A stretch of 64,000 bases of DNA, taken from positions 962,049 through 1,026,048 of the forward strand of contig NZ_BLJA01000001.1 of assembly GCF_019972295.1 (NCBI RefSeq). The letters are read 5' to 3'. This document shows positions 4,204 through 54,405 of the stretch, piece after piece (the stretch's first letter is position 1; each line of letters starts with the position of its first letter). Made by a program: the position numbers and the translations under genes. The DNA is from Geobacter sp. AOG2 (lineage in GTDB: Bacteria; Desulfobacterota; Desulfuromonadia; Geobacterales; Pseudopelobacteraceae). Under the pieces are notes generated by a model that saw only the letters and a program-made list of their open reading frames with translations, was not told the origin of the DNA and did no database searches.

Positions 4204-4280
4204 TGGCGGGCGGCATGGGATTCGAACCCACGACCCCAGGCTTCGGAGGCCTGTACTCTATCCAACTGAGCTAACCGCCC
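4204..4280 (-). tRNA. tRNA-Arg (anticodon CCG)
   Basis: A complete cloverleaf on the minus strand. The acceptor stem is GGGCGGT/GCCGCCC, the D arm TAGCTCAGTTGGATAGAGTA, the anticodon stem CAGGC/GCCTG around loop CTCCGAA (anticodon CCG), and the T arm GTGGGTTCGAATCCCAT. The discriminator is G and the CCA end is encoded. It decodes CGG arginine codons. Confidence 0.97.
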
Positions 4281-46036: not shown

Positions 46037-47056
46037 ATGAGCCCCCTCCGCCATATACTTTGCAGATCGCTGACTCTGATTGCGGTGCCCAGCCTGTTCG
46101 TTATTTCTGCTTCGGCGGCGGAGACTGAACCTAACACATTACATCCCGCCGCCGAGAAGGTCGAGACCGCGATTCAAGGGCCGGTTGCCCGGGTTAACGG
46201 CAGCGACATCTCCGCAGCTGAACTGAAGCGGGCTCGCAAAGTGCTGCAGGCCAGCCAGCCGGGTGCGCAGATCTCCGCTGATGAACAGAAGGAACTTGAC
46301 AGACGGGTGGTAGACCAACTCATTTCCGCTGAACTACTCTACCAATCGGGGCAGAAACTGGGTATTAAGGACCTTGACAAACAAGTTGATGACAAGATAG
46401 CCCAGGCAAAGGGCCGTTTTGCCAGTGAGGCGGATTTCGCCAAGGCGATCCACGATCTTGATATGAGTGAGAAGGATCTTCGGGAGTATACCCGGAGGGA
46501 CTTTATTATTACTAATTTCGTCACTGCGACGATTATTCCCAAGGTTACGGTCAGCGAAGAGGAAAGCAAAAAGTTTTACGACCAGAATCTTGATAAGTTC
46601 CACCAGGATGAAAAGGTTAGGGCCAGCCATATCCTGTGCGGCATAGACACCAAGGCGAGTGCCGAGGAGAAGAAAAAGGCCCGCGAAAAAGCCGAAAAAC
46701 TTCGTAAGGAATTGGCCAATGGAGCTGACTTCGCCACGTTGGCCAAGGAAAACTCCTCCTGTCCCAGCAGCAAACAGGGGGGGGATCTGGGGTTCTTCGG
46801 CAAGGGGCAGATGGTACCGCCGTTCGAGCAGGCGGCTTTTGCCCTCAAGCCGGGTGAGATAAGCGATGTGGTTGAGACCCAGTTCGGCTATCATATCATC
46901 AAACAGACAGAGCGGACAAAAGCTGAAACCGTACCTTTCAGCGCCGTCCGTTCCAAGATAGAGGATTATTTGAAAAACCAGAAAGTCAATGCCGCGGTGG
47001 GCGATTTTTTGGCAGATGCCCGTAAGACCGCCAAGATCGAAATATTGCTGAAGTGA
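46037..47056 (+). CDS. Periplasmic peptidyl-prolyl cis-trans isomerase, SurA/PrsA type
   Basis: A 339-residue exported chaperone. A signal peptide (about residues 1-28, ending ASA) is followed by a SurA-like N-terminal helical region (VARVNGSDISAAELKRA to about 175) and one parvulin domain (about 205-300) with VRASHILCGID, DFATLAKENSSCPSSKQGGD, LGFFGKGQMVPPFEQAAFAL and VVETQFGYHIIKQ. It catalyses proline isomerisation and helps outer-membrane proteins fold. AAGGAG lies upstream of the ATG. It appears monocistronic and is followed by a GC-rich hairpin. Confidence 0.92.
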   Translation: MSPLRHILCRSLTLIAVPSLFVISASAAETEPNTLHPAAEKVETAIQGPVARVNGSDISAAELKRARKVLQASQPGAQISADEQKELDRRVVDQLISAELLYQSGQKLGIKDLDKQVDDKIAQAKGRFASEADFAKAIHDLDMSEKDLREYTRRDFIITNFVTATIIPKVTVSEEESKKFYDQNLDKFHQDEKVRASHILCGIDTKASAEEKKKAREKAEKLRKELANGADFATLAKENSSCPSSKQGGDLGFFGKGQMVPPFEQAAFALKPGEISDVVETQFGYHIIKQTERTKAETVPFSAVRSKIEDYLKNQKVNAAVGDFLADARKTAKIEILLK

Positions 47057-47087: not shown

Positions 47088-47124
47088 GGGCCGGCCAATT
47101 GTGAGAATGGGCCGGCCCTTCTCA
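47088..47124 (+). terminator. GC-rich hairpin with two competing pairings
   Basis: GGGCCGGCC (47088-47096) can pair with GGCCGGCCC (47110-47118). The sequence TGAGAATGGGCCGGCCCTTC with the next bases TCA (47102-47124) is itself almost a perfect palindrome and would exclude the first pairing. There is only a short U run. It follows the parvulin gene by 31 bases and may terminate it. Confidence 0.55.
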
Positions 47125-47125
47125 T

Positions 47126-47274
47126 GCCCTGTGTGGTTAGTCACGGAGATCGTGACTGGATATTTTGGCTGGAGCCAAGATGGACGCAGGTGTAGCAAGG
47201 GCTACATCAAGGGAGCGTAACGATAGCAGCGGTCCCAAAACCGAGACTGCGACCATGAGCTAACCGCACGGGGT
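47126..47274 (+). ncRNA. Candidate structured RNA, about 149 nt, family unknown
   Basis: Arms 47126-47140 and 47260-47274 pair over 15 bases (GCCCTGTGTGGTTAG with CTAACCGCACGGGGT). The interior contains four hairpins: TCACG/CGTGA; TTTTGGC/GCCAAGA with loop TGGA; GGTGTAGC/GCTACATC with loop AAGG, itself enclosed by ACGC/GCGT; and GCAG-CGGT/ACCG-CTGC. Five G-U type pairs (126/274, 130/270, 134/266, 64/79 and 90/207 in the last digits of 47xxx) are valid only if the plus strand is transcribed. I do not recognise it as any riboswitch, 6S, tmRNA, SRP, RNase P or intron domain. It ends five bases before the stop of a convergent gene. Confidence 0.55.
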
Positions 47275-47279
47275 GCAAA

Positions 47280-48272
47280 TTATCGTGCCGCTCCTGTTGA
47301 AATCCTTATGCTTCGTCCTGATGATAGCCCTGCGAATCTGATGGCCCCCCGATATTCCCCCTCCCGGTAGCAGGCCGCTTCTCCCGCCGGCAGATAGTCG
47401 CCGGTCGAATTCTTCAGAAGAAAAACAAATGATGGGAGCGGCCCGTTTTCGAAGTCCTCCTCCCCGATAGGCATCCGGTATTCCGCCAAGCGGGTGCGTT
47501 GCCCTCCAGCCAGCAATGGCGCGCCAGTTGGTTTCGTCGCCGTTCCGGCCAAGGATGTGCGGGATACGCGGGTCTGGTAGCCGGCCAAAGGAGCCGGTAC
47601 GTGGCCGTAGAGCGTGACCAGAGCGCTCCCCCTCCGGTCAACGCGGATATCGTACCCAGGTATCCAACCCGGCCCCCCAACGGCGAAACGGGCCGTGACC
47701 CGCCCGTTTCCGGGAGAAACGACTACCCGTGTCATGCTCGTAGCGTCTTTTCCTTCCTTTCGCACCGATGCAATACGGGCATCGATGCGGCGAATCTCCC
47801 GTTCCGCACGGCGTCGTGCCGTATAGACCGTTTCTAATTGGGCAATGGCAAAGTCGGTCCCTTGGCGGATTGTCAGCAGTGGATCCGGGTTTGATTTTGT
47901 TTTGCGGGGAGCTTTGCCGCTCTGGGACTTTGCGGCGGATTTGAAAATATTTTCACGCGTCGCCAGCGCCCTCAATCGGTCCTCCATGCGGCTCCTTTGC
48001 TCGATCAGGGCGTTAAGTTCCTTTTCTAACTTGGTATTCCGGCTTAACGGCTGCGTATCGACACGCAGAATGCTGGTCCCCCTCTCGGGACTGATTCGCA
48101 AGCTGCCGGCCAACATGCCTCCCGGCAGAGGGATTTCGGCGATACCCCGGACAGCAGCGGCTCTAAGTTCTACGACAGCGCCGTCTGAAAAGAAGGTGAT
48201 GCTTCTACCGTCGGCGCAGGCCTCGGCGACGGTTGTGAGTAGCAAGATGATAACTGGCAGGACGGTTCTCAT
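47280..48272 (-). CDS. Exported MuiA-like protein (DUF4140/DUF4139), apparently short
   Basis: A 330-residue protein with a signal peptide (about 1-20). Residues about 22-80 resemble the N-terminal beta domain of mucoidy inhibitor MuiA-like proteins; a coiled coil follows (about 80-165 with KLEKELNALIEQRSRMEDRL); then the DUF4139 start GWIPGYDIRVD. The family usually continues for well over 100 residues after the LPAGxxxxY block, but here the protein stops about 30 residues later (SSGRSIRISTGAAR). It may be truncated. The structured element at 47126-47274 abuts this 3' end. The gene is divergent from the one at 48394. Confidence 0.7.
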   Translation of the reverse strand: MRTVLPVIILLLTTVAEACADGRSITFFSDGAVVELRAAAVRGIAEIPLPGGMLAGSLRISPERGTSILRVDTQPLSRNTKLEKELNALIEQRSRMEDRLRALATRENIFKSAAKSQSGKAPRKTKSNPDPLLTIRQGTDFAIAQLETVYTARRRAEREIRRIDARIASVRKEGKDATSMTRVVVSPGNGRVTARFAVGGPGWIPGYDIRVDRRGSALVTLYGHVPAPLAGYQTRVSRTSLAGTATKPTGAPLLAGGQRTRLAEYRMPIGEEDFENGPLPSFVFLLKNSTGDYLPAGEAACYREGEYRGAIRFAGLSSGRSIRISTGAAR

Positions 48273-51949: not shown

Positions 51950-53086
51950 CTAATGACTGATAACCTGCTGGAGGTCTGCAATCAGGTCATCGACATCCTC
52001 CAACCCGACCGAGAGGCGCACCAAGGTATCCTTGATCCCCTTCTTTTCCCGTTCTTCCTTGGGAATTGCTGCATGGGACATCTTGGCCGGGTAGGAGATG
52101 ATGCTTTCCACGCCTCCCAGGCTGACAGCAAAGGCGGCAAACTGCGTTTTCTCCAGTAGTTGCTTGGTCAACTCGTAGGATTCGAGTTCGAAGGAGAGGA
52201 CGGCACCAGGGCCATCTGCCTGGGCAGCATTGACGGCATGACCGGGATGGCTGGCGAGGCCGGGGTAATGCACCTTGAGTACACTTTTCCTGGTCTGGAG
52301 CCAAGCCGCGATGTTTTCGGCACTCTGTTGGCTCTGGTCCATCCTTATTTTGAGCGTCTTGAGCCCTCGCAGAGTCAGAAACGAATCCTGGGGCCCCAGG
52401 ATGGCGCCGAATGCATTCTGGATGAAGCGGATACGATTACCCAGTTCCAGATCATTGACAACGGCAAAGCCACAGATAACATCGCTGTGCCCGTTCAGGA
52501 ATTTGGTTCCACTGTGCAGGACGATGTCACAGCCAAGCTCCAGTGGGCGCTGCAGATAGGGGGTCATAAAGGTGTTATCCACAAGGGTTATGATACCTCG
52601 CGGCTGGGCCAGTTCTACGACCCCACGCAGGTCGGTGATCTTGAGCAGCGGGTTGGAGGGGCTTTCCAGGTAGATTCCCTTGGTTTCCGGCCGGATAGCG
52701 GACTCGATGGCCTTAAGGCTGGTGGCATCCACAAAGGTGGAACCTATGCCGAGACGCTGGAATATGCTGGTCAGCACCCGGTAGGCGCCGCCGTAGACAT
52801 CCTCGCACACCACCAAGTGATCGCCGGGAGAGAAGATTAGTAAGGTGGAGGAGATGGCTGCCATGCCGGAGGCAAAGGCAAAGGCCCGGCTCCCTTTTTC
52901 CAGCCCGGCGATGGCTGCCTCCAGCGCCTCTCGGGTAGGGTTGTCGGAGCGGGCGTAGTCATATTTACCGAAATGGTCTACCGACTGTTGACGATAGGTG
53001 GATGTCTGGTAGATGGGCACGCCCAGCGCGCCGGTCAGGGGATCGGCGGTCTGTCCGCCGTGGATGAGTTGGGTTGCAAACTTCAT
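51950..53086 (-). CDS. Trans-sulfuration PLP enzyme (cystathionine gamma-lyase/beta-lyase type)
   Basis: A 378-residue member of the Cys/Met metabolism PLP family. PLP-Lys lies in LHSGTKFLNGHSD; other conserved features are YDYARSDNPTREALE, FASGMAAISS, VDNTFMTPYLQRP and the C-terminal LVRLSVGLEDVDDL. Members include cystathionine synthase, beta-lyase and gamma-lyase, which sequence inspection does not separate. AAGGAG lies five bases before the ATG. It is second in the SAM-controlled operon, nine bases after its paralogue, suggesting one acts as synthase and the other as lyase. Confidence 0.85.
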   Translation of the reverse strand: MKFATQLIHGGQTADPLTGALGVPIYQTSTYRQQSVDHFGKYDYARSDNPTREALEAAIAGLEKGSRAFAFASGMAAISSTLLIFSPGDHLVVCEDVYGGAYRVLTSIFQRLGIGSTFVDATSLKAIESAIRPETKGIYLESPSNPLLKITDLRGVVELAQPRGIITLVDNTFMTPYLQRPLELGCDIVLHSGTKFLNGHSDVICGFAVVNDLELGNRIRFIQNAFGAILGPQDSFLTLRGLKTLKIRMDQSQQSAENIAAWLQTRKSVLKVHYPGLASHPGHAVNAAQADGPGAVLSFELESYELTKQLLEKTQFAAFAVSLGGVESIISYPAKMSHAAIPKEEREKKGIKDTLVRLSVGLEDVDDLIADLQQVISH

Positions 53087-54243: not shown

Positions 54244-54405
54244 CAAAAATAAAATCCCCTTCCGGGGTGTGGAAGAGGGTTCCTTGAGGGCATCTCTTCC
54301 TTATCTCCCGAAACCGCATGGTTTCGCTGGAATTGGCACCTTACCCTTGCAGGTTGGTTGCCGCGACGTCCTTGGGCCAGTCCCTCGGTCGCTCTCGATA
54401 AGAAA
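54244..54405 (-). promoter_or_regulatory. SAM-I (S-box) riboswitch with transcription terminator
   Basis: On the minus strand the aptamer runs from CTTATC to GATAAG (P1) and contains the S-box core GAGGGACTGGCCC, CGGCAACC and AAGGTGCCAATTCC. Downstream, GGAAGAG next to P1 can pair with CCTCTTCC to form an antiterminator. When SAM stabilises P1, CCTCTTCC instead pairs with GGAAGGGG (8 bp, one G-U) and is followed by ATTTTATTTTT, a rho-independent terminator. So high SAM should switch off the operon of two trans-sulfuration genes, thiF-like and mnmA. Confidence 0.95.

What the first reader, a model, noticed from the sequence alone, without database searches (positions are those of the whole stretch)
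47088..47274. Compact multi-hairpin RNA candidate with strand-specific wobble pairs
A 15-base closing stem encloses four hairpins, and all five non-Watson-Crick pairs are G-U only on the plus strand, as expected of a selected RNA. I cannot match it to a known class. A hairpin region with two exclusive pairings lies directly upstream. It could be a free small RNA, the end of a mobile element, or a bridge-type RNA remnant.
Basis: partly seen in the sequence, partly recalled or inferred. Interest (0 to 1): 0.65.

Follow-up and report, generated by a model that had tools for sequence, protein, structure and literature searches.

The report
Decayed hairpin mobile element, ERIC-like
The odd hairpin RNA is an old, decayed copy of a small parasitic DNA element that is scattered over this bacterium and its relatives, is probably cut and pasted by a borrowed IS630-type enzyme, and carries a conserved hairpin core resembling that of the classic E. 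coli repeat ERIC.

Summary
The structure is real (fold z -7.8) but is not a stand-alone RNA gene. The stretch 47121-47278 is a diverged copy of an apparently undescribed ~164-bp dispersed repeat: at least 20 copies in this genome, and matches in 59 of 141 genomes of the order. The repeat ends in inverted repeats TAGTGTCCCGTGCGGTTAG. Intact 1162-bp IS630-family transposons in related genera carry the same ends and sit at CTAG with TA at both junctions. Two same-genus genomes have the empty site. So it is an IS630-type MITE.

The family folds as one long rod with strong compensatory change. G-U pairs exceed A-C pairs on the plus strand family-wide, which supports the strand argument modestly. 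Host read-through as the cause is not supported. The upstream two-way hairpin is a conserved inverted repeat behind ppiC, probably its terminator.

New point: two internal loops are nearly invariant. An ERIC model from enterobacteria finds related elements in 11 of 39 relatives of the order, and this family's model recognises the same elements on the same strand (best E 8e-7). This suggests a wider ERIC-like superfamily with different ends; convergence is not excluded.

The parts
47121..47278 (+). diverged copy of a ~164-bp IS630-type MITE (full length against the family model)
   Evidence: R1 hit 47121-47278, 95.5 bits, E 4.7e-24, model 1-164; 12 blastn matches in own genome
47121..47140 (+). 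left terminal inverted repeat, decayed (CTCATGCCCTGTGTGGTTAG; family CTAGTGTCCCGTGCGGTTAG)
   Evidence: alignment A1; TIR pattern search
47260..47278 (+). right terminal inverted repeat, outer bases decayed (CTAACCGCACGGGGTGCAA; family CTAACCGCACGGGACACTA)
   Evidence: alignment A1
47183..47188 (+). 5' side of conserved internal loop 2 (GACGCA)
   Evidence: segment mean conservation 0.92 over 100 copies; kept in distant relatives
47189..47208 (+). apical hairpin P4 (GGTGTAGC / GCTACATC)
   Evidence: covarying helix, 4 of 7 pairs with changes on both sides
47209..47222 (+). 3' side of conserved loops 2 and 1 (AAGGGAG, AACG); helix P3 between them is lost in this copy
   Evidence: alignment A1, row L001
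   Evidence: same GGCCGGCC..GGCCGGCC inverted repeat downstream of ppiC orthologues in G002, G005, G004
46037..47056 (+). flanking gene: PpiC/SurA-type peptidyl-prolyl isomerase, convergent with the next
   Evidence: Pfam Rotamase_3, 3.8e-32
47280..48272 (-). flanking gene: DUF4140-containing protein; its TAA stop lies 1 base beyond the element's right end
   Evidence: Pfam DUF4140, 4e-6; same stop directly behind the hairpin in the empty-site genomes

Best explanation
It is a fixed, decayed copy of a miniature inverted-repeat transposable element (MITE). The element has no gene. An IS630-family DDE transposase made elsewhere recognises its ends (GTGTCCCGTGCGGTTAG), cuts it out and pastes it at TA in CTAG, duplicating the TA. 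Shown here: the shared ends, the TA junctions at CTAG of intact IS630 elements, the multi-copy dispersed distribution, and the empty site. Inferred: mobilisation in trans, and origin in a past visit of such a transposon, since the window's complete genome no longer has an intact IS630 transposase with these ends. Between the ends lies a conserved rod-like hairpin with two nearly invariant internal loops, maintained by compensatory changes. Most likely (inferred) this core is selected while the element is active, as a folded transcript of the plus strand or as a folded single strand, for example to insulate neighbouring transcripts or to recruit a host protein. Copies then decay after insertion, as this one has.
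For: 12 matches in own genome, strong ones in the genus and one further genus. TIR with up to 3 mismatches 31 times in own genome against 5 for the reversed control. Internal-deletion relics down to ~35-55 bp. 1162-1163 bp elements with the same TIRs in four genomes, all flanked c-TA...TA-g; the ORFs hit NCBIfam IS630 (3e-46) and Pfam DDE_3. Empty orthologous site in two same-genus genomes. Covariation: 90.8% of cells paired against 84.6% in shuffles, 119 double-change cells against 31.7, none of 500 shuffles as high; slid structures 34-44% paired. Fold and loop letters kept in a distant genome although helices and inner TIR changed.
Against: No transposition or transcript was observed. The autonomous element and the MITE were not found in number in the same genome. 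The outermost bases of this copy are decayed, so its own TA duplication cannot be read. The role of the conserved core is inferred; the strand bias on terminal branches is partly matched by unpaired columns (119:68 against 130:90).
Confidence: 0.92

Rival explanations
1. The core fold is kept only at DNA level (hairpin or cruciform needed for transposition), with no RNA role. This is a rival for the function of the core, not for the MITE identity.
For: Structure decays after insertion: double compensations are 28 of 115 changes from paired states on internal branches but 31 of 358 on terminal ones. Copies in sense and antisense position occur about equally at stop codons (29:23), and the G-U excess is not higher in sense copies (31:25 sense, 34:11 antisense).
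Against: Plus strand folds better than minus in 93 of 100 copies, mean 10.4 kcal/mol. G-U exceeds A-C on internal branches 39:18 while unpaired columns show 41:40. Characterised IS630/Tc1 transposition is double-strand cut and paste (PMC2170065).
Confidence: 0.35
2. A free-standing small RNA or cis-regulator of ppiC or the DUF4140 gene.
For: Stable fold, intergenic, strand-specific wobbles.
Against: Absent at the orthologous site, present at many unrelated loci, no Rfam match, no promoter-like site inside the element.
Confidence: 0.03
3. Remnant of an IS110 bridge RNA or other guide-RNA element.
Against: TIRs of ~20 bp, TA junctions and an IS630 DDE transposase with the same ends. The whole unit is conserved end to end as a separate 164-bp mobile piece.
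Confidence: 0.01
4. The likeness of the core to ERIC is convergence or chance, not common descent. This is a rival for the superfamily reading only.
For: R1 scores on ERIC copies are weak (best 15.1 bits, E 0.0012). TIRs differ. Any long hairpin gains some score in such models, and E-values from the short calibration are rough.
Against: Elements found by the ERIC model (best E 1.7e-6 in a 3.5-Mb genome) are hit by this family's model at the same place and strand in most of 19 loci, best E 7.6e-7, with loop letters in register. The own genome, with its many hairpins, gives no ERIC-model hit at E 0.01.
Confidence: 0.4

Closest known systems
RUP (repeat unit of pneumococcus, proposed to be mobilised by IS630-Spn1)
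   Same: Small gene-less element whose TIRs match an IS630-family transposon; TA target; intergenic; folded rod (PMC2229807, PMC3049150).
   Different: 107 bp, 9-bp TIR by the literature; not compared by sequence here. No conserved internal loops are reported for it in the passages read.
ERIC / IRU / RU-1 of enterobacteria
   Same: Long imperfect palindrome with TA ends; internal loop AAGGCG..GGC / GCC..AACGCA in the same register and strand. ERIC RNA orientation matters for mRNA stability in Yersinia (De Gregorio 2005, as cited in PMC2229807).
   Different: 127 bp against 164 bp; different TIR (TATACTC); middle of ERIC differs; R1 on ERIC scores only E 0.001-0.05 at best; mobilising transposase of ERIC unknown in the sources read.
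Correia / NEMIS of Neisseria
   Same: ~107-155 bp MITE, TA ends, 24-bp TIRs, transcript folds (PMC2229807).
   Different: No sequence relation known to me, not tested; carries promoters and an IHF site by the literature, no promoter-like site seen inside this element.
Chunjie MITE of Geobacter uraniireducens
   Same: MITE of a related genus, dozens of copies (PMC10969869).
   Different: 178-235 bp; sequence not available here. The 5.1-Mb single-contig genome in the Geotalea-like genus (G082, identity guessed from size) gives only 2 weak R1 matches, so probably a different family.
Short RNA elements with centre GRCGTAGCGCTGCTACGCC in G. metallireducens (Aklujkar 2009, PMC2700814)
   Same: Dispersed intergenic hairpin elements; the centre resembles the apical hairpin of the ERIC-like elements found here.
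   Different: The alignment is in a supplement that could not be read; relation untested.

Membership tests
IS630-type MITE | short, no transposase gene, terminal inverted repeats | tested here: met
   164 bp; TIR helix 18 pairs, 93.5% of cells paired
IS630-type MITE | TIRs match those of an autonomous IS630-family element | tested here: met
   TAGTGTCCCGTTTGGTTAGT..ACTAACCGCACGAGACACTA in L191 and similar in three others; NF033545 hit
IS630-type MITE | TA duplication, CTAG target | tested here: met
   met for the IS copies (all c-TA..TA-g) and for many MITE copies (63 of 111 left and 63 right ends with intact TAG); unreadable in the window copy because its ends are decayed
IS630-type MITE | filled and empty sites in relatives | tested here: met
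   G002 and G005 lack the element between ppiC and the DUF4140 gene
IS630-type MITE | moved by the transposase | not testable with these tools
   needs an in vitro or in vivo transposition assay
ERIC | 127-bp length and TATACTC-type ends | tested here: not met
   164 bp, GTGTCCCG ends
ERIC | internal core with loop AAGGCG / AACGCA | tested here: inconclusive
   in register in the three best of 8 ERIC copies (E 0.0012-0.05); indirect link through intermediate elements much stronger
IS110 bridge RNA | lies in the non-coding end of an IS110 element | tested here: not met
   stand-alone 164-bp unit with IS630-type ends
Rfam family | reaches a curated score | tested here: not met
   none for the window copy, other copies or ERIC-like elements

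The most novel reading that the evidence does not exclude
ERIC, this family and the intermediate elements found here belong to one old superfamily: a conserved hairpin core with fixed internal loops that is spread over distant bacterial groups and is mounted on different transposon ends. One branch, this one, has IS630 ends, which points to IS630/Tc1-type transposases as the unidentified mover of ERIC.
Probability: 0.4. Interest if true: 0.68.

Novelty: new member of a known kind. Interest (0 to 1): 0.45.

Why it matters
The copy in the window is ordinary. The family matters because its internal loops stay constant while its helices change over deep divergence, which is unusual for a gene-less parasite and points to a recognised structure. 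Its link to ERIC would give that classic typing repeat relatives outside the gammaproteobacteria and, through the IS630 ends, a concrete transposase to test.

Tried and rejected
Rfam on the window, on other copies and on ERIC-like elements: nothing above gathering for this element. A resident autonomous partner in the complete own genome: no intact IS630 transposase, only a below-cut-off partial match. Selection through host read-through transcripts: sense-context copies do not show more G-U than antisense ones (31:25 against 34:11), so this was dropped. Element ends acting as stop codons (29 left, 23 right) looked striking, but the TAG lies in the CTAG target and insertions inside genes are purged, so no function is claimed. 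The first test of R1 on ERIC with default filters gave nothing; only the unfiltered search did. The Chunjie paper is not held.

Full report
1. What is at the coordinates. The stretch 47088-47274 folds far better than shuffles (z -7.8) and matches no Rfam family. It is two things. At 47088-47118 lies an inverted repeat GGGCCGGCC..GGGCCGGCC behind a ppiC gene; the same repeat lies behind the ppiC orthologue in three same-genus genomes, so it is most likely the ppiC terminator (inference), and its two exclusive pairings follow from GGCCGGCC being self-complementary. The second thing, 47121-47278, is the element.

2. It is a dispersed repeat. A DNA search found 12 matches in the own genome and strong matches in the genus and one further genus. 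The family consensus is about 164 bp: CTAGTGTCCCGTGCGGTTAGT...ACTAACCGCACGGGACACTAG. The end sequence occurs 31 times in the own genome (up to 3 mismatches) against 5 for the reversed control, with relics shortened to 35-55 bp. A covariance model (R1) gives a hit in 59 of 141 genomes of the order, with 17-20 scored copies (capped at 20) in several, and at a stricter limit in 13 of 395 genomes drawn from the phylum. An exact-pattern scan of public genomes names Oryzomonas, Geotalea, Geobacter, Desulfuromonas, Pelovirga and Desulfobulbus records. One contig length there (543,828) equals a contig of G002, so the window's genus is Oryzomonas by inference.

3. It is an IS630-type MITE. In G007, G009, G016 and G024 there are 1162-1163 bp elements with the same ends, each flanked c-TA ... 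TA-g. The ORFs of the G007 copy match the NCBIfam IS630 transposase and Pfam DDE_3; that copy is split in two frames, while the other three have a 375-aa open frame. Preference of IS630 for TA in CTAG is in the literature (Tenzen and Ohtsubo 1991, cited in PMC2170065), and IS630-family transposition is cut and paste with TA duplication (PMC2170065). RUP of pneumococcus is the recognised precedent (PMC2229807). The orthologous locus in G002 and G005 runs from ppiC through the hairpin directly to the stop of the DUF4140 gene without the element: an empty site. The own genome, a single contig, has no intact IS630 transposase of this kind, so the copies here are probably stranded.

4. The fold. 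The family folds as one rod: TIR helix, helix P1b, helix P2, loop 1 (AAGGCG / CAACGCAG), helix P3, loop 2 (GACGCA / GAGGAG), apical hairpin P4. On 45 copies 90.8% of cells pair against 84.6% in shuffles, with 119 double-change cells against 31.7; structures slid by 1-3 columns pair in 34-44%. This copy has lost helix P3 and its outermost bases.

5. Strand. G-U cells exceed A-C cells 189 to 62, and independent changes 93 to 47. Split by branch, internal branches give 39:18 while unpaired columns give 41:40; terminal branches give 119:68 while unpaired columns give 130:90, so the terminal excess is partly a matter of composition or mutation. The plus strand folds better in 93 of 100 copies. Copies transcribed in sense by the neighbour do not show more G-U than antisense ones, so selection by host read-through is not supported. 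I read this as selection on the element's own plus strand while it is active, followed by decay. Whether as RNA or as single-stranded DNA is open.

6. Context. Of 111 copies, 29 left ends and 23 right ends supply the TAG stop of an open frame of at least 80 codons, against 75 of 443 background CTAG reads. This can follow from the CTAG target and purging of insertions inside genes.

7. The wider relation. In a distant genome of the phylum (G230) helices and even the inner TIR have changed with compensation while both loops keep most of their letters. Loop 1 looked like the internal loop of ERIC, so I tested it. R1 on eight ERIC copies, unfiltered, gives E 0.0012, 0.0032 and 0.049 for three copies, same strand, loops in register. 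A model of ERIC (R2, eight enterobacterial copies) then found elements in 11 of 39 relatives at E<=0.01, best 1.7e-6, and none in the own genome. These elements have other ends (ATTCC.., TTCGCG..) but the same loops. R1 hits most of the same 19 places on the same strand, best 7.6e-7 over 59 kb, with loop 2 letters ACGCAG / CAAGGAG identical. One such element sits inside a relic of the present family (L336). I take a common superfamily as somewhat more likely than convergence. Caveats: calibration is rough, hairpins gain score in any such model, and I noticed the ERIC likeness before testing it.

8. Verdict. The finding is a decayed copy of a new family of a known kind. The family's constant loops and the ERIC link are the interesting part.

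Noticed in passing
L336 (G004:C91:27696-27820): An ERIC-like element with TAATTCC ends is inserted inside a relic of the present MITE family: a nested insertion of two element families.
   Followed up: partly
L330-L348, e.g. L337 1501-1625, L342, L347: Dispersed 125-bp hairpin elements (TAATTCCGGTTTCAAATC..GATTTGGAATTGGAATTA) with core AAGGCGGC..GCCAACG in several genomes of the order, found by an ERIC model; no Rfam family.
   Followed up: partly
L162, L164, L169, L172, L173 (contig ends): Five contigs of one Candidatus Eisenbacteria MAG end inside the same terminal repeat, as if a multi-copy element with these ends broke the assembly there.
   Followed up: no
L048, L052, L165 (Geobacter sp. 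palsa_1151 MAG): Copies with NN in the middle and, in two, a shortened interior; probably mis-scaffolding at the palindrome rather than real deletions.
   Followed up: no
window 54298-54404 (-): SAM riboswitch (Rfam RF00162, 92.9 bits), on the same strand as, and upstream of, a trans-sulfuration-type gene at 51950-53086.
   Followed up: no
window 4204-4280 (-): tRNA-Arg (CCG), the only tRNA in the window.
   Followed up: no
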